NCBI GenBank assembly: GCA_949297665.1
Contig: CASFTO010000026.1
Coordinates: 1-46,124 of the forward strand
DNA: 46,124 nt
Direction of reading: 5' to 3'
Source: an uncultured Alphaproteobacteria bacterium
GTDB taxonomy: Bacteria; Pseudomonadota; Alphaproteobacteria; RF32; CAG-239
Of the stretch, positions 27,595 to 39,878 are shown in pieces (position 1 is the stretch's first letter; each line of letters opens with the position of its first letter). The notes beneath the pieces were generated by a model. The model was given only the letters and a program-made list of their open reading frames with translations. It made no database searches and had not been told where the DNA came from. The position numbers and the translations under genes were made by a program.

Positions 27595-27882
27595 ATGGCA
27601 TCATTATCCAATCGAGTTGTTTCTATTTATAATCGCAAAACAAGCATGCGTTTAGCACCGGCGGAATGGAAAGCAATCGACACCATTTGCAAACGAGAAA
27701 ACATAAAACGAAAAAATCTATTTGAATTAATTGACGCCAACAAAGATACAAAATTAGGGCTAACATCATCGGTACGATTATTTTCCATAATTTATTACCG
27801 TAAGGCTCTACAATATCAACTAGAAAACAAACAAAACAATCATACTTCACCGATAAGTGACGCAATAAAAGGAATTATCTGA
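27595..27882 (+). CDS. Ribbon-helix-helix (RHH_4) DNA-binding protein, copy 1
   Basis: 95 residues. NRKTSMRLAPAEWKAID (13-29) is the beta strand and first helix of the RHH_4 fold, CKRENIKRKNLFELID the second helix, and SSVRLFSIIYYR the conserved tail. These small alphaproteobacterial proteins bind DNA as dimers. AAAAGGAGGAACC is a very strong ribosome site. A paralogue lies at 29536, and the two bracket the serpin gene. Confidence 0.82.
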   Translation: MASLSNRVVSIYNRKTSMRLAPAEWKAIDTICKRENIKRKNLFELIDANKDTKLGLTSSVRLFSIIYYRKALQYQLENKQNNHTSPISDAIKGII

Positions 27883-27909: not shown

Positions 27910-29376
27910 TTATTCGGAAAACGTTTTACTTTTTAATTCATCTTTCAAATAAAAATCAGCTTGTTCATTTTTATTTTCATACCACGCCGGATTACCATTT
28001 TTGCGCTCTTTAACATCAACTTCACCAACATCAATTTGTTGATTAGCTTTAACTTCCTCAACAGATAATTTATTACCTTTTACAATCGCCCCGATAATAT
28101 CCCCCTGATTAATCATAAATATAAAAGGTCTGTTTGCATTAAAAACTGCCTTCACCGAATGTGTATTTTCTTCTTTATCATCTAAATCATTTTTTGATTC
28201 CGAAATACCACCTTCATCAATACGCAATCTAACATTCATTAAGATATCGGAAACTTGTGCCTGTGTATCAAAATTAATCATCTTTGCAAAATTATAAATC
28301 GGATTAAAAATTTCTGTAACATCAAGAACTGCAAACAAAGCACGAGCATTCTCTAAATTATACGAAAGCTGAAATTTAGGGATAAACAAATCAACATTCA
28401 TCTTTTGAAAATCGGGCATCATTTTATAATCTTCGAAATTAGCCACAAATTTACTAAAATCAGAATTTTCACAAGGAAGATAAAAAACAATAAAATCTCC
28501 CGTATCAAAAAACAATCGTACCGCCTGCATAAACTCATTTTCAAAATAATCTACTTCACCATTTAGATACATCATATTAACAGAAGTCTGTTCTCCGCTA
28601 ACCGTATAAAAAATTTTCTTTTTCGTCATACTTTGGTTAAAAGGAATTTCCCAATTAGGATAAACCCCCAAAGAAGCCAGAACAAAAAGTTCATCATCAT
28701 TAACCGGCCGCACCTCAATAATTTTATCCACAACACCTTGAGTTTTTTCGCTCATCCAAGCATTCAGTGTATCTGTACCATCTTGAACACTCCACGTTTC
28801 AGCCTTAACAACATCACCGATTAAAGTACGATATCGTTGACTAAAAACATTTCCCCATAAAGAAATTCCCCACTCATAAGTTTTCCTTTTAGACTGCAGA
28901 TATTGTTTGATTTTATCATTCACATCAGCCAAACGAAAAATAGAAAAAATCTTAGAAAATTGATGCAAACTGGAATCAACAACTCCATTTGCCAACAAAA
29001 CTGAAACAGCATAAAAGGATAAAGGAGAAACAAGAAAATTTTTCCCTGCACTGTTTTTATATTCATTTTTAAGCAAAATTGATGCTAATTTTAATTCTCT
29101 ATCACTCAACGAAAAACTGCTATTAGGCACACGTCGAACAGCTTTAGAAGACTTATCATCAATCGCATATTGTGGCAGTTGACGCACACCTGATTGTTTT
29201 TTTACATTATTCTTTTCAACTCTGAACTTGCCATACTGATTTTCTGGTAACCTATCCTCCATAGAAGGTGTCATCTTTTCCTCGGCAACAAACCACCCCG
29301 GTCTCATATATTGAGCATAACAGAAACCAACATTAAAATAAATAACACCCAAAGCAACGATAGTTTTAAAAAACAT
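27910..29376 (-). CDS. Secreted serpin-family protein with an atypical reactive-loop hinge
   Basis: 488 residues from ATG 29376, chosen for GAGG six bases upstream and the signal peptide MFFKTIVALGVIYFNVGFCYA. After a polar linker of about 80 residues comes the serpin fold: NFLVSPLSFYAVSVLLANG (helix B), MMYLNGEVDYFEN, VDLFIPKFQLSYNLE, VRLRIDEGGISES (strand 5A and hinge) and NRPFIFMI ... GAIVKG (strands 4B/5B). Loop length is normal, but hinge positions P12-P9 are E-S-K-N rather than small Ala-like residues, and the loop is acidic, so loop insertion (inhibition) is doubtful. About 50 polar residues extend past the fold. Confidence 0.85.
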   Translation of the reverse strand: MFFKTIVALGVIYFNVGFCYAQYMRPGWFVAEEKMTPSMEDRLPENQYGKFRVEKNNVKKQSGVRQLPQYAIDDKSSKAVRRVPNSSFSLSDRELKLASILLKNEYKNSAGKNFLVSPLSFYAVSVLLANGVVDSSLHQFSKIFSIFRLADVNDKIKQYLQSKRKTYEWGISLWGNVFSQRYRTLIGDVVKAETWSVQDGTDTLNAWMSEKTQGVVDKIIEVRPVNDDELFVLASLGVYPNWEIPFNQSMTKKKIFYTVSGEQTSVNMMYLNGEVDYFENEFMQAVRLFFDTGDFIVFYLPCENSDFSKFVANFEDYKMMPDFQKMNVDLFIPKFQLSYNLENARALFAVLDVTEIFNPIYNFAKMINFDTQAQVSDILMNVRLRIDEGGISESKNDLDDKEENTHSVKAVFNANRPFIFMINQGDIIGAIVKGNKLSVEEVKANQQIDVGEVDVKERKNGNPAWYENKNEQADFYLKDELKSKTFSE

Positions 29377-29535
29377 CACCAACCTCATAATAAATTACAC
29401 ATCTATAATGATAAAAAAAAATTAATTTTATATTAGCAAAAAGAAATTGTGCATATAAACAAAATACAAATATTAATTGAAAATTTATACAAATATACTA
29501 TAAAATAGATTTAAGTAGCAAGATAGGAGAAACCG

Positions 29536-29829
29536 ATGACCGAATTATCAAATAAAGTTATATTTATAAACAATCACAAAACAAGTATGCGACTGGCAAA
29601 TGCAGAATGGGAAGCCATAGATTATATCTGCAAACGAGAAAACATTAAACGCAATACGTTAATAGAAATGATAAACGCGCGCAAAAACACCCAACTAGGA
29701 TTAACATGCTCTGTACGTTTATTCTCATTAATTTATTACTACCAACTGCTTTTAAAATACCATATAAAAAGCAAAAAAGAAAATAACAATACTTCACCGA
29801 TTTTTGATGCCATAAGAGGAATAATATAA
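29536..29829 (+). CDS. Ribbon-helix-helix (RHH_4) DNA-binding protein, copy 2
   Basis: 97 residues, closely similar to the protein at 27595: shared blocks KTSMRLANAEWEAIDYIC, CKRENIKR, LGLTCSVRLFSLIYY and NTSPIFDAIRGII. GATAGGAGAAACC precedes the start. Same strand and similar distance from the serpin as copy 1; a pair of local regulators, or a duplication product. Confidence 0.82.
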   Translation: MTELSNKVIFINNHKTSMRLANAEWEAIDYICKRENIKRNTLIEMINARKNTQLGLTCSVRLFSLIYYYQLLLKYHIKSKKENNNTSPIFDAIRGII

Positions 29830-29841
29830 CAAAATATTCCG

Positions 29842-30273
29842 TTATTTATGCCCAAAAAGCCGCTCTCTTTCATTAGCCAACCATTTATTACGAATATAAA
29901 TATCGTCCGTACCATGCTTCACGGCATCACCATAATAGGCAATTTTAAAATCAATTTTCTCCATATATTGCTTCAAGGTATTCATCTGTCTTTCTATTTC
30001 TACTTTTTGTTTTTTAAACATTTCAAATCTTTTTTGCAAAGTAGCATCACCTTGTTGACACAACTGAATATAAGTTCGAATTTCCTTCAAAGGCATTCCA
30101 GTCCCTTTAAGACACTCTACTATAATCAACCAATCAACATCATCTTCTTCAAAAACTCTTGCTCCAGAAGAACCTTTTCTCACAAAAGGCAACAACCCCT
30201 CCTTATCGTAATACCGAATAGTGTGAGTTGTGAGGCCCAATTTTTTAGCAACTTGCCCAATTGAATATCGCAT
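29842..30273 (-). CDS. MerR family regulator, NmlR/AdhR-like (Cys54)
   Basis: 143 residues from ATG 30273 (AAGGAG upstream). Winged helix-turn-helix: YSIGQVAKKLGLTTHTIRYY (3-22), GLLPFVRKGSSGARVFEEDD (26-45), then CLKGTGMPLKEIRTY with Cys at residue 54. A Cys at this place is the aldehyde/thiol sensor of NmlR and AdhR. A coiled-coil dimerisation helix follows (about 80-118). It is divergent from the metallophosphoesterase operon; one operator dyad lies upstream of its own promoter and one inside the divergent promoter. It probably twists those promoters into activity on electrophile or thiol stress. Confidence 0.85.
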   Translation of the reverse strand: MRYSIGQVAKKLGLTTHTIRYYDKEGLLPFVRKGSSGARVFEEDDVDWLIIVECLKGTGMPLKEIRTYIQLCQQGDATLQKRFEMFKKQKVEIERQMNTLKQYMEKIDFKIAYYGDAVKHGTDDIYIRNKWLANERERLFGHK

Positions 30274-30337
30274 AACATACTCCTTTTCTATAATTGTAAA
30301 ATACAATAAACAAAAACAATGTCAACTTGAAGAAAAC

Positions 30338-30355
30338 CTTAGAGTAGGCTCTAAG
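30338..30355. promoter_or_regulatory. MerR-type operator dyad 1
   Basis: CTTAGAGTAGGCTCTAAG. Arms CTTAGAG / CTCTAAG around TAGG are the same as the other two sites. It lies between merR and the divergent operon, near a minus-strand TTGACA (30325-30320) that likely belongs to merR itself. Confidence 0.8.
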
Positions 30356-30386
30356 TGTATAAAATTTCAATCTCTAAAAAAAGGGC

Positions 30387-30417
30387 TTGACTTAGAGTAA
30401 GCTCTAACAATTAATCT
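30387..30417 (+). promoter_or_regulatory. MerR-activated promoter of the metallophosphoesterase-cupin-reductase operon
   Basis: TTGACT (30387-30392), 19-bp spacer, TAATCT (30412-30417). The dyad TTAGAGTAAGCTCTAA (30392-30407) fills the spacer. A spacer two bases longer than optimal, with a dyad inside it, is the classic architecture of MerR-activated promoters. Confidence 0.8.
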
Positions 30418-30460
30418 AATATAAAATCGAGTCGAACATATTTTTATAGGAGAACAATTA

Positions 30461-31585
30461 ATGACCTGTGCCATAACCACTTCATTTTTAGGATGTCTTG
30501 TAACACTATCTCTTTACTTTCGTTACATATACTTTATCAACACCTCTGCAACTTGCAAACTTATATCTTTAATCATTGCTATCATATTCGGTTGCATTCC
30601 CCTTTTAATCAGTTACAAATATGAAGATTTATTTGGCAATTTTTATCCTATATACAGATACAGTTTATACTACATTTATGTTGGCTGCATTATCTTATTT
30701 ACACTATCTATTTTCAGAGATATTATCTGGATAATAGCGCATAAAATTTCACCACAACATATTACATCACCATTTACTCTAAAAACTCATTTAATCAATA
30801 ACATCATAAGTATCGGATTAACGATAATCTTAACCACATACGCACTACTAGAAGGCATAACCACACCCGAGATAAAAACATCAACACTATACAGTGACAA
30901 AATCACAACCCCATTCAAAATTGCCGTTTTGAGTGATTTACACATCCACCGTACCATAAATCCTCAAAAAATAGAGAATATCATAAACAAGACCAACCAA
31001 GAAAACGCAGATATAATTCTTCTCGCTGGAGATATCATTGATGACGAAGTAAATAAAATCCAAGCAATCTCTCAACTTTTAACTAACCTAAAAGCCAAAC
31101 AAGGCATTTATTTTGTAACCGGTAATCACGAATTTTACACTGGCTACAAAGAAACAACAAATGAATTAAAAAAACTAGGATTTACCTTTTTAGAGAATAG
31201 CGGCACAAGCATAACTCCAAATATATACTTAGCTGGTATTCCGGACTGGTTTTCAGCTAACCACCACCAAATACCAATATCTTTGCCAACTGCACTAAAA
31301 AACAGCACAAACTCACAATATAAAATACTAATGTCACATACACCGGTAGATTTCGGTAAACAAAATAATTTTGACCTAGAAATTTCCGGTCACACACACG
31401 GAGGACAAATTTTCCCATTTCATATATTTGTAAAGTTAGCGAACAAATATTTATCTGGACTGTATCCAATGAATAATAACGCACAAATTTATATATCAAA
31501 CGGAGCTGGACAATGGGGACCGCAAATGCGTTTCTTAGCCCCCAGCGAAATAAGCATTATAACCATACACCCCAAATCAAAATAG
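30461..31585 (+). CDS. Membrane-anchored metallophosphoesterase (YaeI/YkuE type)
   Basis: 374 residues. Four membrane helices occupy 1-140, then the calcineurin-like domain: VLSDLHIH, AGDIIDD, TGNHEFY, MSHTP and SGHTHGGQ give all metal ligands (Asp/His, Asp, Asn-His, His, His-x-His). Relatives hydrolyse UDP-sugars or phospholipid-linked phosphoesters at the membrane. First gene after the MerR-type promoter; TATAGGAG precedes its start. The cupin gene begins 14 bp after it. Confidence 0.88.
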   Translation: MTCAITTSFLGCLVTLSLYFRYIYFINTSATCKLISLIIAIIFGCIPLLISYKYEDLFGNFYPIYRYSLYYIYVGCIILFTLSIFRDIIWIIAHKISPQHITSPFTLKTHLINNIISIGLTIILTTYALLEGITTPEIKTSTLYSDKITTPFKIAVLSDLHIHRTINPQKIENIINKTNQENADIILLAGDIIDDEVNKIQAISQLLTNLKAKQGIYFVTGNHEFYTGYKETTNELKKLGFTFLENSGTSITPNIYLAGIPDWFSANHHQIPISLPTALKNSTNSQYKILMSHTPVDFGKQNNFDLEISGHTHGGQIFPFHIFVKLANKYLSGLYPMNNNAQIYISNGAGQWGPQMRFLAPSEISIITIHPKSK

Positions 31586-31599
31586 CAAGGAGAAAAAAC

Positions 31600-32079
31600 A
31601 TGAATTCAAAAAAATTGATTTTATATCTAAGCGCAATTATTTTAACCGTATCAACATCACCCATAGGTGCCACAGAAATGACAAAAGCACCAATAGACAC
31701 GATTTTTTCACAAGGAGAAAAAAATCCTTATGGACAATTTTTCACCGGACAGACTTATTTGAATATGCTAAGTGCAAAGGATGATATTTTTAATGCCCCC
31801 ATTGGCAATGTTACTTTTGAACCCGGAGCCAGAACAAATTGGCACAAACATAGTGGCGGACAGATTTTATTAATTTTAAATGGCGAAGGACGCTATCAAG
31901 AAAAAAATGGGGAAATACGAATTTTACATAAAGGCGATATAGTTCGCATAGCCCCCGATGTTGAACATTGGCACGGAGCTGCACCAGATTCTTGGTTTAC
32001 ACATATTTCGCTTGAAACCAATGTTCCTAACAACACTACCACATGGTTAGAACCTGTAACAAATGAGGAGTATAAATAA
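31600..32079 (+). CDS. Exported cupin-domain protein
   Basis: 159 residues from ATG 31600 with AAGGAG upstream (a longer frame overlaps the previous gene and is unlikely). Sec signal peptide MNSKKLILYL ... SPIGA (1-24). Cupin motif 1 is GARTNWHKHSGGQILLILNG (His-x-His and Gln in the metal site) and motif 2 is HKGDIVRIAPDVEHWHGA. The enzyme class is open: such small exported cupins occur with flavodoxins and carboxymuconolactone-like proteins. It overlaps the next gene by one base (TAATG). Confidence 0.85.
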   Translation: MNSKKLILYLSAIILTVSTSPIGATEMTKAPIDTIFSQGEKNPYGQFFTGQTYLNMLSAKDDIFNAPIGNVTFEPGARTNWHKHSGGQILLILNGEGRYQEKNGEIRILHKGDIVRIAPDVEHWHGAAPDSWFTHISLETNVPNNTTTWLEPVTNEEYK

Positions 32080-32618
32080 TGAGCAAAAACGTTCTTGTAT
32101 TATCTGCAAGTTTTCGTAAAGGCGGAAATTCCGATGTTCTTTGCGACGAATTCATAAAAGGTGCCAAAGAAGCTGGAAACAACACAGAAAAAATATATTT
32201 AAATGATTATAAAATAAACTTTTGCCGAGGATGTGGTGTATGTAATAACACCCATAAATGTGTACAAAAGGATGACATGGTAAAAATTCTAGATAAAATG
32301 GTAAATGCCGATGTAATTGTAATGGGCACACCTGTTTACTTCTACAACATGAACGGACAAATGAAAACCCTAATTGATAGAACCGTTCCAAGATATGAAG
32401 AAATTAGCAATAAAGATTTTTACTTTATTCTAGCCGCTGCCGATAGCAGTCGTGCTAATATGGAACGTGTATTAGAAAGTTTCCGTGGTTTTACAGAAGA
32501 CTGTCTAAACAACGCTCATGAAAAAGGTATCGTTTATGGAACCGGCGCATGGCAAATTGGGGATATAAAAGGAAGTCCTGCATTAAAAGAAGCCTACGAA
32601 ATGGGCAAAAACGTATAA
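32079..32618 (+). CDS. NADPH-dependent FMN reductase / iron-sulfur flavoprotein-like
   Basis: 179 residues, cytoplasmic. LVLSASFRKGGNSDVLCDEF (6-25) is the FMN phosphate loop, GTPVYFYNMNGQMKTLIDR (about 84-102) the isoalloxazine-side loop. CRGCGVCNNTHKC (about 49-61) is a compact Cys motif as in iron-sulfur flavoproteins. It likely reduces quinones or supplies electrons. Coupled to the cupin gene and last gene of this unit, being followed by a strong terminator. Confidence 0.85.
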   Translation: MSKNVLVLSASFRKGGNSDVLCDEFIKGAKEAGNNTEKIYLNDYKINFCRGCGVCNNTHKCVQKDDMVKILDKMVNADVIVMGTPVYFYNMNGQMKTLIDRTVPRYEEISNKDFYFILAAADSSRANMERVLESFRGFTEDCLNNAHEKGIVYGTGAWQIGDIKGSPALKEAYEMGKNV

Positions 32619-32630
32619 TGTAAACAAGTA

Positions 32631-32658
32631 AAAGAGCAGGTACCCCACCTGCTCTTTT
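32631..32658 (+). terminator. Rho-independent terminator after the FMN reductase gene
   Basis: Perfect 11-bp stem AAAGAGCAGGT / ACCTGCTCTTT with an ACCCC loop and T run. It separates the MerR-driven operon from the polyferredoxin-tatAC genes. Confidence 0.9.
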
Positions 32659-32690
32659 GTGAAATAAAAGCTAATAACCGTGAAAAAATC

Positions 32691-32719
32691 TTGATAAAAA
32701 ACATCTATCCGAGTACTCT
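32691..32719 (+). promoter_or_regulatory. Possible promoter of the polyferredoxin-tatAC operon
   Basis: TTGATA (32691-32696), 17-bp spacer, TACTCT (32714-32719). It has a normal spacer and no full TTAGAG/CTCTAA dyad, so it seems not to be under MerR control, unlike its neighbours. Confidence 0.45.
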
Positions 32720-32747
32720 CACAATAACGATAGAAGAGGAAAATGAG

Positions 32748-34043
32748 ATGCTAAAAGCCAAAACACTTCAAAAAGCAAGAATAATTCTTGCTCTCCTAAT
32801 AGCCACCCTATGCATCGGCGGACTATTAGGTCTATTTTATCCCCTCAAAATATTTAATATAAATATAGCGCCTTTAATACAGAGTACCATAACCTCTTTT
32901 ACTATATCGTCAGGAATACTAATTATTCTTCTGTTCATTATAACTTTTCTTTTTGGAAGAATATACTGCTCCACAATATGTCCTCTTGGTCTATTGCAAG
33001 AATTATACTTACTCATCTTCCATCGCAAAAAGCACCCTACACAAAAGAATTCGCCTTTAAAATATTTCATAGCAGCATTAACTTTAGGTACTTTATTAGG
33101 AGGAACCGCATACCTAATGCGCCTAATAAATCCTTATTCTATTTTTGGATCAGCCGTCAGTGGAGCCACATACGGATTAACCCTGATAGCCGTCATTGCG
33201 CTTTTAACATGGTTTAAGGGCAGATATTTCTGCACAAACATTTGTCCGGTTGGCACCATTTTAGGAATAATCGCCCGTCATTCATTATATAAAATTAACA
33301 TAAACAAAGACGCCTGCGTCGCTTGCGGATTATGCGCACAAAAATGCCCTGCGGATTGCATAGATTACAAAAACAAAAGTGTTGATAATGAAACATGCAT
33401 AAAATGCTTTCGTTGCTTAAGTCTCTGCCACAATAGCGGAATTTCTTTTGAAAAAGAAAAGAAACAAAGAACCACGACACCAATTAACACAGGTCGCCGT
33501 CGATTTCTCATCTGTACCGGAGCTCTAGCTGTTTTAGCAATTGCTTACAAAGGTGGTATAGAACTAGGAAAGAAAGTTGTCGAAAAACTAAAAACCACAC
33601 TCCTTCCGCCGGGAGCCGGAGATACAAAAACATTTGCAAACAAATGTTTAAATTGTAACCTATGCGTTGCTAATTGCCCCATGAAAATAATCCAAAAAGC
33701 CAACGAAGAATTTCCGGTTGTACACCTAAAATATCAAAAAAGTTTTTGCGATTACAACTGTCACAAATGTTCAGAAGTATGTCCGAGCGGCGCCATAAAA
33801 AAACTAACCTTAAAAGAAAAACAACATACACAAATAGGTCTAGCTTCTATCAATATCGATTCGTGCATACAATGTGGATTATGCGTAATGGAGTGTCCTC
33901 GCTCAGCTATAACCAAGGCGCAAGGAGATTTTCCTCAAATTGATGCTGAAAAATGTATCGGTTGCGGTGCCTGCCAAGCAGTATGTCCTGTATCAGCAAT
34001 AAAAGTAAATGCAACTGAATTTCAAAAAACACTTAAACAATAA
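32748..34043 (+). CDS. NapH-NapG-like fusion polyferredoxin with internal twin-arginine motif
   Basis: 431 residues from ATG 32748 (GAAGAGGAAA upstream). Residues 1-235 are NapH/YccM-like: four helices, C-x3-CP motifs at 74/78 and 162/166, then two [4Fe-4S] motifs (Cys 190-200 and 217-227). Residues 249-266 read GRRRFLICTGALAVLAIA, a twin-arginine motif plus hydrophobic stretch in mid-protein. Residues 290-431 are NapG/MauM-like with four more clusters (Cys 300-310, 334-345, 373-383, 403-413). Two plus four clusters equals NapH plus NapG. It should carry quinol electrons across the membrane to a periplasmic acceptor. tatA follows after 12 bp. Confidence 0.85.
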   Translation: MLKAKTLQKARIILALLIATLCIGGLLGLFYPLKIFNINIAPLIQSTITSFTISSGILIILLFIITFLFGRIYCSTICPLGLLQELYLLIFHRKKHPTQKNSPLKYFIAALTLGTLLGGTAYLMRLINPYSIFGSAVSGATYGLTLIAVIALLTWFKGRYFCTNICPVGTILGIIARHSLYKININKDACVACGLCAQKCPADCIDYKNKSVDNETCIKCFRCLSLCHNSGISFEKEKKQRTTTPINTGRRRFLICTGALAVLAIAYKGGIELGKKVVEKLKTTLLPPGAGDTKTFANKCLNCNLCVANCPMKIIQKANEEFPVVHLKYQKSFCDYNCHKCSEVCPSGAIKKLTLKEKQHTQIGLASINIDSCIQCGLCVMECPRSAITKAQGDFPQIDAEKCIGCGACQAVCPVSAIKVNATEFQKTLKQ

Positions 34044-34055
34044 AAGGAGCAAAAT

Positions 34056-34271
34056 ATGTCAATCGGATTAAGCGAACTCATACTGATATTAGTTGTCGTA
34101 TTATTACTATTCGGAGGAAAAAGGATTCCAGAATTAGCCAAAGCATTTGGAAAAGCCTCTTATGAATATAAAAAGGCCAAAGAAGCCCTTCAAAACGAAG
34201 CTGATAACTTAAAAGAAACAATTGAAAAAGTCGCACAACAAGAAGAAGAAAAAGATAACAAAAAAGAATAA
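34056..34271 (+). CDS. tatA: Twin-arginine translocase subunit TatA
   Basis: 71 residues. One N-terminal helix (LILILVVVLLLFGG), the FGGKRIPELAKAFG hinge and amphipathic helix of TatA, and a Lys/Glu-rich tail. TAAAAGGAGC gives a strong ribosome site. tatC starts at the base after its stop codon. No tatB is present, as in minimal TatAC systems where TatA does both jobs. Confidence 0.93.
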   Translation: MSIGLSELILILVVVLLLFGGKRIPELAKAFGKASYEYKKAKEALQNEADNLKETIEKVAQQEEEKDNKKE

Positions 34272-34994
34272 ATGCAAAAAAACGAACAAAGCAGAGATGA
34301 AGAAAGCCTAATTTCGCACTTAAACGCTCTGCGAAACACATTATTACATTGTCTGTTTGCACTTGGGATAGCTCTTCCGATAACCCTATTTGCATCCCCG
34401 TATTTTCTGAATTGGCTCATAAAAAGATTGATTCAAGATACCCCTATAACATTAAATTTTTTCTCTCCGGCAGAAGTTTTCATCTTACAAATAAAAATAG
34501 CCCTTGTGCTCGACCTGCTAATATGTTTCCCGTATATAGCCAAAAAATTATGGAACTTCATTCTTCCTGCGTTGTATGAAAATGAAAAACGTTTTATAAA
34601 AAAAATAGTTCTAAGCTCAAGCTCTCTCTTCATTCTGGGGGTTGGCTTTTGTATCAGTTTCATACTCCCATTAATTATCAAATTCGGAGCCAGTTTTGCA
34701 ACAGATGAATTGAAAGCGACCATTGGAATATCAAATGTTATCGGCTTAAGTCTATGGCTTTCCGTAATCTTCGGCTTAATGTTTCAATTTCCGCTAATTA
34801 CCTATTCTCTGATAAAATCTGGAATATGCACTTATGAATCCGTCAAGACCAAACGTCCTTATATATTCACATTTATACTGATTATAGCTGCCATTCTCAC
34901 TCCACCTGATGTAGTTAGCCAACTAATGTTAACCATCCCAACGTATGCATTATTTGAAATAGGGCTATATTTTTCAAAAAAAATTAATCAATAA
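34272..34994 (+). CDS. tatC: Sec-independent translocase TatC
   Basis: 240 residues, six helices. The N-terminal SLISHLNALRNTLLHCL (about 12-28) is the conserved signal-recognition segment, and AEVFILQIKIALVLDLLICFPYIAKKLWNFILPALYENEKRF is followed by the standard TatC loops; TPPDVVSQL (about 217) is the family's C-terminal signature. Start codon directly abuts the tatA stop. Its place behind a protein with a mid-chain RR motif suggests a dedicated or co-regulated export path. Confidence 0.94.
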   Translation: MQKNEQSRDEESLISHLNALRNTLLHCLFALGIALPITLFASPYFLNWLIKRLIQDTPITLNFFSPAEVFILQIKIALVLDLLICFPYIAKKLWNFILPALYENEKRFIKKIVLSSSSLFILGVGFCISFILPLIIKFGASFATDELKATIGISNVIGLSLWLSVIFGLMFQFPLITYSLIKSGICTYESVKTKRPYIFTFILIIAAILTPPDVVSQLMLTIPTYALFEIGLYFSKKINQ

Positions 34995-35023
34995 ATTTAT
35001 ACGCAACTTAAATAAAAAAGCGC

Positions 35024-35054
35024 TTGACTTAGAGTATACTCTAAAAATTATACT
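35024..35054 (+). promoter_or_regulatory. MerR-activated promoter of the exported flavodoxin gene
   Basis: TTGACT (35024-35029), 19-bp spacer, TATACT (35049-35054), with the dyad TTAGAGTATACTCTAA (35029-35044) in the spacer. Same -35, dyad arms and spacing as the promoter at 30387. This places the gene in the regulon of the MerR protein at 29842. Confidence 0.85.
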
Positions 35055-35084
35055 GACAGCACAAAAAAGCTGAAAGGAGAGATT

Positions 35085-35669
35085 ATGAGAAATAAAATAC
35101 TGAATATATTAAAAAAATCACTTTACGTACTAAGTACTATCATTTTAACTGTAACCAATAGTAATGCTGAGCCAAACAAGGATATCAACATGACCACAAA
35201 TAAAAAAATCCTCATTGCCTACTATTCATGGTCAGGTAACACAAAAGAAGTTGCCGAAGCTATTCATGAAAAGATTGGTGGCGACCTTTATCGTATAGAA
35301 ACCGAACAGACCTATCCGGAAGAATATCGAGCCACAACAGCTCAAGCTAAACGAGAAATCAATGAAGGTTTTCGTCCTAGCTTAAAAGGCAAAGTAGAAA
35401 ATATCGCCCAATATGACATAATTTTTATCGGTTCGCCAAACTGGTGGGGAACAATAGCGCCGGCTGTAAGCAGTTTTCTTGCAGACAATAACCTAAAAGG
35501 CAAAACCGTAATACCATTCATAACCCATGGAGGAGGCGGAGCTCAAAACACCATCACAGATTTAACCAAACAATGCGCTGGATGCGCTGTAAACAAAGAT
35601 GGTTGGGTTGGATATGGAAGTCGCACTTTTGGTATATCTGGCTGGCTTGATGACCTAAAAATCAACTAA
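35085..35669 (+). CDS. Exported flavodoxin-like protein
   Basis: 194 residues. Signal peptide to about residue 28 (MRNKILNILKKSLYVLST ... NSNA), without a twin-arginine motif. The mature part is a flavodoxin: IAYYSWSGNTKEVAEAI (about 44-60, FMN phosphate loop), FIGSPNWWGTIAPAV (about 112, aromatic FMN loop) and the ITHGGGGAQNT segment. A second Met at residue 36 would give a cytoplasmic form, but only the first ATG has a ribosome site (GAAAGGAGAG). Driven by a MerR-type promoter 30 bp upstream; a strong terminator follows. Confidence 0.85.
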   Translation: MRNKILNILKKSLYVLSTIILTVTNSNAEPNKDINMTTNKKILIAYYSWSGNTKEVAEAIHEKIGGDLYRIETEQTYPEEYRATTAQAKREINEGFRPSLKGKVENIAQYDIIFIGSPNWWGTIAPAVSSFLADNNLKGKTVIPFITHGGGGAQNTITDLTKQCAGCAVNKDGWVGYGSRTFGISGWLDDLKIN

Positions 35670-35691: not shown

Positions 35692-35721
35692 AAAAACTTT
35701 ACTCATTGGAGTAAAGTTTTT
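35692..35721 (+). terminator. Rho-independent terminator after the flavodoxin gene
   Basis: Thirteen-bp stem AAAAACTTTACTC / GAGTAAAGTTTTT with an ATTG loop. Confidence 0.9.
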
Positions 35722-35789
35722 CTTGTATCTCAAAAAATTTGAAACTAGGATAAAACATAAATAAAACCATTTAAGCAGAGGAGAGGATG

Positions 35790-36506
35790 ATGAAAAAAAT
35801 TATCGCATCAATATTTCTGGCAACAGGATTAATACTAGGAGGTTTCTTCCCCGGTTATTACTATTACAAAGCAAAATTAGATAATAACTCTGTCACCGTC
35901 AAAGGGTTATCGGAAATGAATGTTAAAGCCGATTTAGCGATTTGGAAATTAAAATTTGTTATAACCGGCAACGAATTGTTGAGTGCACAAAAAAAGATAA
36001 CATTACAAGCATCAACAATCACAGAATTCTTAAAAGAACAAGGATTTAACGATGACGAAATCAAATCCGAGCGTATCATCACCACAGATTTAATGGCCAA
36101 CCCATACCGCAATAATGATAACAACAACATGCGATTTATTCTATCCCAAACTATAACGGTAAGAAGTACAAACGTAGAGTTAGTCGAAAAATCTCTTCCC
36201 CAAACTGATAACTTAATCGCAAAAGGGATCATCTTTGACGGTTCATCATACGACTATCCGGTATCATACATTTTCACCAAACTTAACGAGATAAAACCGC
36301 AAATGTTAGAAGAAGCGACAAAAAATGCCAAAGAAGCCGCTTTTGAATTTGCCAAGAGTTCTGGCAGTAAAGTAGGCAAAATACGTCATGCAAATCAAGG
36401 AGTCTTCTCGATTCTCCCACGGGAGCAAATCTCAGGAAGTTTTGAATCTCAACAAGTAGAAAAAACTGTTCGAGTTGTATCCACAATAGAATACTGGCTG
36501 GAATAA
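35790..36506 (+). CDS. SIMPL domain (DUF541) envelope protein
   Basis: 238 residues; two ATGs in a row, the second preferred because AGGAG lies 6 bases before it. N-terminal signal anchor (KKIIASIFLATGLILGGFFPG). Mature part begins VTVKGLSEMNVKADLAIWKLKF, the classic SIMPL/DUF541 opening, with YIFTKLNEIKPQMLEEATKNA near the end of the domain. Family members sit in the periplasm or membrane and affect stress tolerance; mechanism unknown. Confidence 0.85.
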   Translation: MKKIIASIFLATGLILGGFFPGYYYYKAKLDNNSVTVKGLSEMNVKADLAIWKLKFVITGNELLSAQKKITLQASTITEFLKEQGFNDDEIKSERIITTDLMANPYRNNDNNNMRFILSQTITVRSTNVELVEKSLPQTDNLIAKGIIFDGSSYDYPVSYIFTKLNEIKPQMLEEATKNAKEAAFEFAKSSGSKVGKIRHANQGVFSILPREQISGSFESQQVEKTVRVVSTIEYWLE

Positions 36507-38708: not shown

Positions 38709-39878
38709 CTATTTATTCAGCAATTCATCTGCCAAAGATTCCAATTGTTTAACGTCTGCATCTTTCATAGCTGATTTAATAGAAACAACCGTATCCATGA
38801 AAGTCAAATTCTTAAGGTTTTCCATTTCTGCCTTCATTTTTTTAGCAGCCATTGGAGCCCAAGAACCATTTTCAATAAATGCCACTTTACGATTCTGATA
38901 ATTCTTGCTCTTAAGGTGAGCAATAAAACTTTCCATACAAGGGAAAAGTCCACCATCATATGTAACAGAAGCTAAAACTAATCGATCATAACGAAAAGCA
39001 TCTTCTACAGCCTCTGCCATATCATCACGAGCCAAATCAGCAATTGCAACTTTAGGAGCCCCTTTTGCCTCTAAAATTTCTTTTAATTTCTCTGCGACTT
39101 TTTTAGTATTTCCATAAACAGAAGCATAAGCAATAAAGATTCCCTCATCTTCAGGACGATAGCTACTCCAGATATCATATTTATTAATATAATACCCCAA
39201 ATTTTCGGTCAACATTGGACCATGTAAAGCAAAAATCTTTTGAATATCCAAAGTTGCAGCTTTTTTCAGTAAAGTCTGAACTTGCGCACCATATTTACCA
39301 ACAATATTGATATAATAACGGCGAGCTTCACAATCCCATTCATCATCAACATCTAAAGCTCCAAATTTACCAAAAGCATCGGCCGAGAACAAAATCTTCT
39401 CTTTCTTTTCATAAGCAACCATAACTTCTGGCCAGTGAACCATTGGAGCCATAACAAACGTTAAAACATGCTCACCCAAAACCAACTCATCGCCTTCATT
39501 AACAACAATTTTACGACCTTCTAAATCAAGATGTTCAAAAAACTGCGGTATCATATTAAATGTTTTCGGATTCGTTACAACCTTAGCATTTTTATATTTA
39601 TTCAAAAACTGTTCAATATTTGCAGCATGATCGGGTTCCATATGCAAAACGACTAAATAATCCGGTTCTCTGGCACCCAAAACCTCTTCCAGATTTTTGA
39701 ACCATTCATCAGTTGCTCTCTTATCAACCGTATCCATAACAGCAATTTTCTCATCCATAATAACATATGAATTATAAGAAATTCCATCAGGAACAACATA
39801 TTGACCTTCAAACAAGTCTAATGTTTTATCATCAGCACCCACATAATAAACCGCATCAGTTAATTTTTTATTTTGCAT
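38709..39878 (-). CDS. A-type flavodiiron protein (oxygen/nitric oxide reductase)
   Basis: 389 residues. Metallo-beta-lactamase-like diiron domain 1-245 with HMEPDH (79-84: His79, Glu81, Asp83, His84), APMVHWPEVM (His about 147), SADAFGKFG (Asp about 166) and LHGPML (His about 228). Flavodoxin domain 255-389 with AYASVYGNTKKVAEKL (FMN loop). It reduces O2 to water or NO to N2O and protects anaerobes. No rubredoxin gene is adjacent; the reductant may be one of the flavin or iron-sulfur proteins elsewhere in this window. Single-gene unit. Confidence 0.95.
   Translation of the reverse strand: MQNKKLTDAVYYVGADDKTLDLFEGQYVVPDGISYNSYVIMDEKIAVMDTVDKRATDEWFKNLEEVLGAREPDYLVVLHMEPDHAANIEQFLNKYKNAKVVTNPKTFNMIPQFFEHLDLEGRKIVVNEGDELVLGEHVLTFVMAPMVHWPEVMVAYEKKEKILFSADAFGKFGALDVDDEWDCEARRYYINIVGKYGAQVQTLLKKAATLDIQKIFALHGPMLTENLGYYINKYDIWSSYRPEDEGIFIAYASVYGNTKKVAEKLKEILEAKGAPKVAIADLARDDMAEAVEDAFRYDRLVLASVTYDGGLFPCMESFIAHLKSKNYQNRKVAFIENGSWAPMAAKKMKAEMENLKNLTFMDTVVSIKSAMKDADVKQLESLADELLNK

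What the first reader, a model, noticed from the sequence alone, without database searches (positions are those of the whole stretch)
29842..35669. A MerR regulon with three near-identical dyads that ties together an exported cupin, an FMN reductase, a membrane phosphoesterase and an exported flavodoxin
Seen: dyads TTAGAG-N4-CTCTAA at 30339, 30392 and 35029; the last two lie in promoters TTGACT-N19-TAATCT and TTGACT-N19-TATACT. Known: a 19-bp spacer with an internal dyad is the mark of MerR activation. Inferred: the regulator at 29842 controls both the operon at 30461 and the flavodoxin 4.6 kb away. The exported cupin and flavodoxin, the electron-carrying polyferredoxin and TatAC between them look like one inducible redox module of the envelope. 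I know of no named system with this gene set.
Basis: partly seen in the sequence, partly recalled or inferred. Interest (0 to 1): 0.75.

Follow-up and report, generated by a model that had tools for sequence, protein, structure and literature searches.

The report
MerR switch for exported redox proteins
In an uncultured relative of gut Alphaproteobacteria, a MerR-type regulator gene lies near two promoters that carry a near-identical dyad inside an unusual 19-base gap, and comparison with relatives indicates that the regulator likely switches on a set of redox proteins, most of them predicted to be exported, which would protect the cell envelope from reactive chemicals.

Summary
In detail: exact dyads at 30339, 30392 and 35029, the last two inside TTGACT-N19-TAnnnT promoters. 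The own genome has one more such promoter, upstream of a leader-bearing carboxymuconolactone decarboxylase (CMD). Among 33 family genomes, operator and regulator co-occur almost perfectly (17 both, 1 operator only, 15 neither). The -10 element was not part of the search, yet 71 of 72 distinct sites have it at exactly 19 bp. The regulator's best solved relatives are Haemophilus NmlR chains, and Cys54 is kept in 18 of 18 family genes. All 19 aligned polyferredoxins carry an internal twin arginine, and each of the 17 TatCs found in the family is next to one, so Tat looks dedicated to exported redox proteins. Binding, inducer and function (likely envelope defence against electrophiles) are inferred. 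New variant of a known kind.

The parts
29842..30273 (-). merR, 143 aa, NmlR/AdhR-like regulator with Cys54
   Evidence: Pfam MerR_1 72 bits; best solved matches HI_0186 and two sister chains, 100 bits, with Cys54 aligned (that these are NmlR is recalled); NCBIfam NmlR best of 17 but 94 against cut-off 175
30298..30325 (-). promoter-like element of merR, TTGACA-N16-TATTTT
   Evidence: consensus match only; such matches are no commoner here than in shuffles
30339..30354 (.). dyad 1, outside any 19-bp spacer, upstream of merR's -35; possibly an autoregulatory or auxiliary site (inferred)
   Evidence: exact dyad; conserved in 6 of 6 close genomes, 52-54 bp from dyad 2
30387..30417 (+). operator-promoter P1, TTGACT-N19-TAATCT with dyad 2 (30392-30407)
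   Evidence: conserved in 6 of 6 close genomes
30461..31585 (+). membrane metallophosphoesterase (YaeI/LpxG-like), 374 aa
   Evidence: Pfam Metallophos 65 bits; YaeI 93 bits, below cut-off 188
31600..32079 (+). cupin with signal-peptide-like leader, 159 aa
   Evidence: Cupin_2; (R)-mandelonitrile lyase model 129 bits, cut-off 140; solved relatives TM1010 and 4bif; leader by eye
32079..32618 (+). NADPH-dependent FMN reductase-like flavoprotein, no leader seen
   Evidence: FMN_red 81 bits
32630..32658 (.). hairpin between FMN reductase and polyferredoxin, terminator-like
   Evidence: 13-pair stem listed on the minus strand; palindromic, kept in 6 of 6 close genomes
32691..32719 (+). conserved promoter-like TTGATA-N17-TACTCT ahead of polyferredoxin
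   Evidence: both boxes identical in 6 of 6 close genomes; not listed by the consensus scan; function inferred
32748..34043 (+). NapH-NapG-type fusion polyferredoxin, 431 aa, internal twin arginine at residues 250-251
   Evidence: Fer4 families, NapH 100 bits, below cut-off 234; RR invariant in 19 of 19 aligned homologues
34056..34271 (+). TatA
   Evidence: TatA_B_E 53 bits
34272..34994 (+). TatC, the one match found in the genome
   Evidence: TIGR00945 162 bits over cut-off; one match in G000
35024..35054 (+). operator-promoter P2, TTGACT-N19-TATACT with dyad 3 (35029-35044)
35085..35669 (+). flavodoxin with signal-peptide-like leader, 194 aa
   Evidence: Flavodoxin_4 95 bits; solved relatives 4ici, 3klb; leader by eye

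Best explanation
A MerR regulator of the NmlR/AdhR type that carries the Cys54 residue is predicted to bind near-identical dyads set in 19-bp promoter spacers and to switch on a scattered set of redox proteins, most of them predicted to be exported, likely as an envelope defence against electrophiles such as aldehydes or quinones. Shown here: the dyads, their exact place in the promoters, their conservation, and the near one-to-one co-occurrence with the regulator. Inferred: binding, activation by distortion of the spacer as in other MerR proteins, sensing through Cys54, and the substrates. In this genome the predicted direct targets are the phosphoesterase-cupin-FMN reductase operon, the flavodoxin, and on another contig a small membrane protein with a leader-bearing CMD. 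The polyferredoxin-TatA-TatC unit between them is likely a partner: its internal twin arginine is predicted to make the C-terminal Fe-S half a Tat passenger, and it would feed quinol electrons to flavodoxin and other exported reductases. Here it has its own promoter-like element; in other loci it is under the operator.
For: Co-occurrence in 33 family genomes: operator and MerR 17, operator alone 1, MerR alone 0, neither 15 (Fisher p 1.5e-8, relatedness not corrected; in the 26 genomes at least 90% complete 14, 1, 0, 11). -10 element at exactly 19 bp in 71 of 72 distinct sites although it was not searched for; 0 of 72 at 14-18 or 20 bp, 4 at 21, 12 at 24. 70 of 75 sites lie 26-126 bp upstream of a reading frame on the same strand. 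The same families recur as first gene: DXS-like 12, phosphoesterase 11, small membrane protein 10, flavodoxin 9, aldo-keto reductase 8. Best solved relatives are HI_0186 and sister chains. Cys54 in 18 of 18 family genes (19 of 20 rows, G025's gene twice; the exception is the 33% homologue of G047). The C-terminal part of the window's MerR has no cysteine, unlike the pair in metal sensors (sequence; PMC9909328, passages). TatC in 17 of 33 family genomes, each beside polyferredoxin. Operator in the polyferredoxin operon in 22 of 52 loci titled proteobacterial, directly before it in 7. In 7 of 7 other Pseudomonadota with the exact promoter, a CMD gene and a MerR lie beside it.
Against: No binding or expression data. 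The family genomes are related, so counts are not independent, and some loci are the same records as G genomes. In this genome polyferredoxin-TatAC has its own conserved promoter-like element behind a hairpin. 4 of 19 polyferredoxin-positive family genomes lack the operator and 3 of 18 operator-positive genomes lack polyferredoxin. Most polyferredoxin operons show no operator upstream (30 of 52, 20 of 24 and 3 of 4; 12 of the 80 are cut by a contig start). G021 has operators with one mismatch but no MerR at 1e-15. G001 has a polyferredoxin with RR but no TatC match. NCBIfam's NmlR cut-off is not reached, and no alcohol dehydrogenase is among the window's targets. MerRs next to the same promoter in 7 other genomes have Arg at position 54, so the operator does not imply thiol sensing.
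Confidence: 0.72

Rival explanations
1. The MerR regulon is real, but its signal is not an electrophile: it is a metal, a small hydrophobic molecule or an oxidised flavin or quinone, and the targets are a respiratory or catabolic set for gut compounds rather than a defence.
For: The targets in relatives include aldo-keto reductase, DXS-like enzyme, alpha/beta hydrolase, CMD and genes for the lactate-racemase nickel cofactor, which could serve catabolism. MerRs on the same promoter elsewhere have Arg in place of Cys54.
Against: Cys54 is kept in 18 of 18 family genes; the window's MerR has no cysteine in its C-terminal part, where metal sensors have two (sequence; PMC9909328, passages); AdhR with a CMD target answers to aldehydes in B. 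subtilis (PMC4776306, passages).
Confidence: 0.25
2. Polyferredoxin-TatAC is a constitutive unit that merely sits between two operator-driven genes; it is not functionally tied to the regulon.
For: Conserved hairpin and own promoter-like element in 6 of 6 close genomes; present without operator in 4 of 19 polyferredoxin-positive family genomes; no operator found upstream in 30 of 52 loci titled proteobacterial.
Against: Directly behind the operator in 7 of 52 and inside an operator-headed operon in 22 of 52 such loci; no TatC match in 16 of 33 family genomes, 10 of 26 among those at least 90% complete, so it is not housekeeping here; aldo-keto reductases behind the operator have Tat leaders.
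Confidence: 0.2
3. The dyads are hairpins of RNA or chance repeats, not protein operators.
For: The dyad at 30339 was flagged as terminator-like on the minus strand; the dyad alone with mismatches is hardly commoner than its controls.
Against: The searched pattern includes a -35 box, and a -10 box stands at 19 bp in 71 of 72 sites; the pattern follows the regulator gene across genomes.
Confidence: 0.03

Closest known systems
NmlR of Haemophilus influenzae and Neisseria; AdhR (YraB) of Bacillus subtilis
   Same: MerR-family DNA-binding fold, best solved match, Cys54 (Cys52 in AdhR), dyad in a 19-bp spacer as described for MerR activators; AdhR also controls a CMD (yraC) (PMC4776306, PMC9909328, PMC5045206, passages).
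   Different: Below the NmlR equivalog cut-off; several scattered targets, mostly leader-bearing redox proteins; no adhC or estD among the window's genes named.
NapH-NapG fusion polyferredoxin (PFD) of Tooke et al. 2017
   Same: NapH-like membrane half, twin arginine just before the last membrane segment, four Cys motifs in the half behind it; reporter fusions of the MLMS-1 protein were Tat-dependent in E. coli (PMC5449189, passages).
   Different: Here the gene sits with its own tatA-tatC, and in many loci in a MerR regulon; the passages seen do not mention such an operon. Tat dependence not tested.
NapGH quinol dehydrogenase
   Same: Fe-S motifs before and behind the last membrane segment; NapH 100 bits, NapG 54 bits, both below cut-offs.
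   Different: One polypeptide; no nitrate reductase among the neighbours named; partner likely flavodoxin or exported reductases (inferred).
Polytopic YkuE-type metallophosphoesterases (PMC5449189, passages)
   Same: Membrane segments followed by a metallophosphoesterase domain.
   Different: No twin arginine before the phosphoesterase domain in the 6 rows where the place could be found (window, four close relatives, L103); not located in the other rows.

Membership tests
NmlR/AdhR clade of MerR regulators | MerR-type winged HTH and coiled-coil homology | tested here: met
   Pfam MerR_1, MerR, MerR-DNA-bind over cut-offs
NmlR/AdhR clade of MerR regulators | Closest solved or curated family is NmlR | tested here: met
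   HI_0186 and two sister chains 100 bits (NmlR by recall), 3gpv 96 (called NmlR in PMC5045206), a Listeria MerR protein 3gp4 81, next 43; NmlR first of 17 NCBIfam models. No tree was built.
NmlR/AdhR clade of MerR regulators | Conserved Cys54 | tested here: met
   18 of 18 family genes; 19 of 20 rows, G025's gene being fetched twice and G047 having Lys
NmlR equivalog (NCBIfam NF041849) | Score over 175 bits | tested here: not met
   94.4 bits; so not filed as NmlR itself
NmlR/AdhR clade of MerR regulators | Operator in a 19-bp spacer | tested here: met
   71 of 72 distinct sites
NmlR/AdhR clade of MerR regulators | Control of an adhC/adhA alcohol dehydrogenase | tested here: not met
   no alcohol dehydrogenase among the window's and C76's targets; an iron alcohol dehydrogenase behind the operator in 2 relatives; adhC elsewhere in the genome not searched
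NmlR/AdhR clade of MerR regulators | Response to aldehydes or other electrophiles | not testable with these tools
   needs induction assays
Dual Sec/Tat polyferredoxin (PFD) | Twin arginine directly before the last membrane segment | tested here: met
   R250-R251 invariant in 19 of 19; hydrophobic segment 253-271 by a simple hydropathy count
Dual Sec/Tat polyferredoxin (PFD) | Four cluster motifs in the exported half | tested here: met
   Cys at 300-310, 334-345, 373-383, 403-413
Dual Sec/Tat polyferredoxin (PFD) | Three clusters on the cytoplasmic side, as given for MLMS-1 | tested here: inconclusive
   two full motifs (190-200, 217-227) and two further Cys pairs (74/78, 162/166)
Dual Sec/Tat polyferredoxin (PFD) | Tat-dependent translocation | not testable with these tools
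   needs reporter fusions

The most novel reading that the evidence does not exclude
A Cys54-sensing MerR switch builds a reductive chain outside the inner membrane that needs no NAD(P)H: quinol electrons pass through a Tat-inserted NapH-NapG fusion to exported flavodoxin and, in relatives, to a Tat-exported aldo-keto reductase-ferredoxin, which may carry a nickel-pincer nucleotide made by larBCE in the absence of LarA. In this family the Tat translocase itself has become part of that inducible chain.
Probability: 0.15. Interest if true: 0.8.

Novelty: new variant of a known kind. Interest (0 to 1): 0.52.

Why it matters
It turns three dyads in one contig into a MerR regulon with many predicted targets across a family of Alphaproteobacteria whose named records are mostly gut and rumen metagenome bins. 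It also suggests that Tat, usually thought of as general machinery, is here kept for a set of exported redox proteins. Both claims are cheap to test in E. coli. The leader-bearing flavodoxin and the ferredoxin-tailed aldo-keto reductase raise a concrete question: what reduces them outside the inner membrane, where NADPH should be absent.

Tried and rejected
Chance repeats or RNA hairpins: rejected by the -10 element at 19 bp in 71 of 72 sites.

Tat as housekeeping: rejected for this family (no TatC match in 16 of 33 genomes, 10 of 26 among those at least 90% complete).

Phosphoesterase as a further Tat protein of the YkuE type: no twin arginine in the 6 rows where its place could be found; the test failed to locate it in the other rows.

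Tat signals by model TIGR01409: none in G000, but it also reported none in G003, G006, G009 and G014, whose aldo-keto reductases have clear RREFL leaders, so it says little. Other Tat passengers of G000 were therefore not excluded.

Aldo-keto reductase as an obligatory nickel-pincer enzyme: 8 of 12 reductase-positive family genomes have no LarC match.

Structure of polyferredoxin: model mean pLDDT 55.7, not used. Small membrane protein: model 79, no solved match at E up to 0.001.

Papers: no paper holds MerR, flavodoxin, cupin and carboxymuconolactone decarboxylase together; the operator string gave two siRNA papers. The listings showed no such regulon in titles or starts of abstracts (one search listed 15 of 197 papers); one search listed one genome paper, PMC3306737, not opened.

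Rows to know about: G002 has 6% contamination, and its contigs C33 and C112 look nearly identical to G025 contigs around the operator; its second MerR and one DXS-like row likely come from there and were kept in the counts. One search merged 75 sites to 72 by identical 80-base windows; near-identical sites of sister species stay apart. One search used sites with at most one mismatch, plus two loci with two.
Full report
What is there. The three dyads are exact, and two of them fill TTGACT-N19-TAnnnT promoters. The first, at 30339, is in no such promoter; it lies upstream of merR's own promoter-like element, 53 bp from the second. In 6 of 6 close genomes (this one, G003, G006, G008, G009, G016) the pair is kept at 52-54 bp. 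The own genome (1.91 Mb in 109 contigs) has one more full site, on contig C76, in front of a 160-residue membrane protein and a leader-bearing carboxymuconolactone decarboxylase, CMD.

Is it a regulon. I searched TTGACTTAGAG-N4-CTCTAA with up to one mismatch in 57 genomes: 18 have it, 75 sites in all; the pattern read backwards occurs once each in 2 genomes. MerR homologues at E up to 1e-15 are in 18 of 57. In the 33 genomes of the family the table is 17 both, 1 operator only (G021), 0 MerR only, 15 neither; p is 1.5e-8 without correction for relatedness. The one MerR match outside the family (G047, 33% identity) has no operator. The -10 element was not in the search, yet TANNNT stands at exactly 19 bp in 71 of 72 distinct sites; at 14-18 and 20 bp in none, at 21 bp in 4 and at 24 bp in 12. 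70 of 75 sites lie 26-126 bp before a reading frame of the same strand; the other five lie at -34, -34, -16, 390 and 843.

Targets. As first gene behind the operator (names): DXS-like enzyme 12, membrane phosphoesterase 11, small membrane protein 10, flavodoxin 9, ferredoxin-tailed aldo-keto reductase 8, then dienelactone hydrolase-like 4, DUF362 4, cupin 4, polyferredoxin 3, MerR itself 2, iron alcohol dehydrogenase 2, and some single cases. Gene starts are mechanical. Cupins, flavodoxins and CMDs have leaders that look like signal peptides (by eye). Of 62 distinct aldo-keto reductase rows 58 have a twin-arginine leader, as have 6 of 16 DUF362 and 3 of 19 FMN reductase rows; none among cupins (21), flavodoxins (61) or CMDs (19). 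The window's own FMN reductase has none, and this genome has no match to that aldo-keto reductase at 1e-30.

Regulator. Best solved relatives are HI_0186 of Haemophilus and two sister chains at 100 bits (NmlR by recall), then 3gpv, called NmlR of B. thuringiensis in PMC5045206, at 96, a Listeria MerR protein at 81, then 43 and less. Cys54, needed for the formaldehyde response in NmlR and AdhR (PMC4776306, passages), is kept in 18 of 18 family genes; G047 has Lys. The NmlR equivalog cut-off is not reached (94 against 175). Outside the family, 7 of 397 further Pseudomonadota have the exact promoter, one site each. In all 7 a CMD and a MerR (33-36% identity) lie beside it, with Arg at position 54. 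AdhR of B. subtilis also controls a CMD, yraC (PMC4776306). So the operator class and its CMD target are likely old, and the larger redox set looks like an expansion in this family (inference).

Polyferredoxin and Tat. TatC is found in 17 of 33 family genomes, each time one match beside a polyferredoxin; 2 further genomes have polyferredoxin without TatC, of which G013's contig ends at TatA and G001's does not. R250-R251 is invariant in 19 of 19 aligned polyferredoxins, just before a hydrophobic segment. This is the plan of the NapH-NapG fusion whose reporter fusions were Tat-dependent (PMC5449189, passages). Among 80 named loci (the best 80 of 427; 52 titled Alphaproteobacteria, Rhodospirillaceae, Azospirillum or proteobacterium, 24 Gastranaerophilales, 4 unnamed) TatA or TatC is within the next three genes in 75. 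An operator, with up to two mismatches or three plus the -10 element, lies in the operon upstream in 22 of 52, 4 of 24 and 1 of 4; directly before polyferredoxin in 7, 0 and 0. With up to two mismatches anywhere in these loci there are 64 sites in 38 of 80, and none for the pattern read backwards. In the window and its five close relatives, however, a hairpin and a conserved TTGATA-N17-TACTCT separate the FMN reductase from the polyferredoxin.

How it likely works. Resting MerR would hold the 19-bp promoters idle; modified at Cys54 it would distort the spacer, as described for MerR proteins (PMC9909328, passages). The products would reduce or remove electrophiles, mostly outside the inner membrane. 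Electrons for an exported flavodoxin should not come from NADPH there and likely come from quinol through the polyferredoxin. Each of these steps is inferred.

Verdict. A well supported new regulon of a known regulator type, with an unusual gene set. What is not known is the signal and the chemistry.

Noticed in passing
L072:3175-6989, L145:1610-10208, L163:5372-12639: Genes larB, larC, larE and, in some, a transporter-like gene share a cluster with a Tat-leader aldo-keto reductase-ferredoxin, flavodoxin, polyferredoxin and tatAC in loci titled Alphaproteobacteria and Gastranaerophilales. Lar genes are in 38 of 80 loci, 35 of them with the reductase, and all 48 reductases have RRxF; no LarA over cut-off in 57 genomes. 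PMC11796402 (passages) says that about 15% of the genomes analysed hold larB, larE and larC but no larA, pointing to an unknown user of the cofactor; the reductase is a candidate, though 8 of 12 reductase-positive family genomes have no LarC match.
   Followed up: partly
L198-L204: In 7 of 7 distant Pseudomonadota genomes the exact operator-promoter lies between or beside a MerR with Arg54 and a CMD gene: the same operator with another residue at the sensor position.
   Followed up: partly
L048, L049, L052, L055, L060, L069, L079, L086, L092, L096, L099, L105: A DXS-like enzyme is the most frequent first gene behind the operator (12 rows). The one scanned fits PRK12315 best and is also just over the dxs cut-off, so it may be a true DXS; whether these genomes have another was not tested.
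   Followed up: no
L065:1475-3928, L085:3015-5489: The membrane phosphoesterase is joined to DUF362 and TM1506 (DUF1893) domains in one 817-residue protein (L065); L085 has a similar 824-residue frame.
   Followed up: no
window 27910-29388: A serpin-like protein (Serpin 140 bits) stands near the merR gene and is kept there in L118-L120. Two small proteins that look like paralogues (27595-27882 and 29536-29829, by eye) flank it.
   Followed up: no
window 38709-39878: A flavo-diiron-type protein (NorV model 179 bits, far below its cut-off of 635) lies 3 kb downstream of the flavodoxin: an oxygen or nitric oxide reductase candidate.
   Followed up: no
L001:2561-3043: A 160-residue protein with two hydrophobic segments, without a Pfam match or a solved fold match at E up to 0.001, heads the CMD operon behind the operator and is first gene at 10 operator sites.
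   Followed up: partly
window 35692-35721 and 35787-36506: A terminator-like hairpin separates the flavodoxin from a SIMPL/DUF541 protein; the two genes stay neighbours in close relatives.
   Followed up: no
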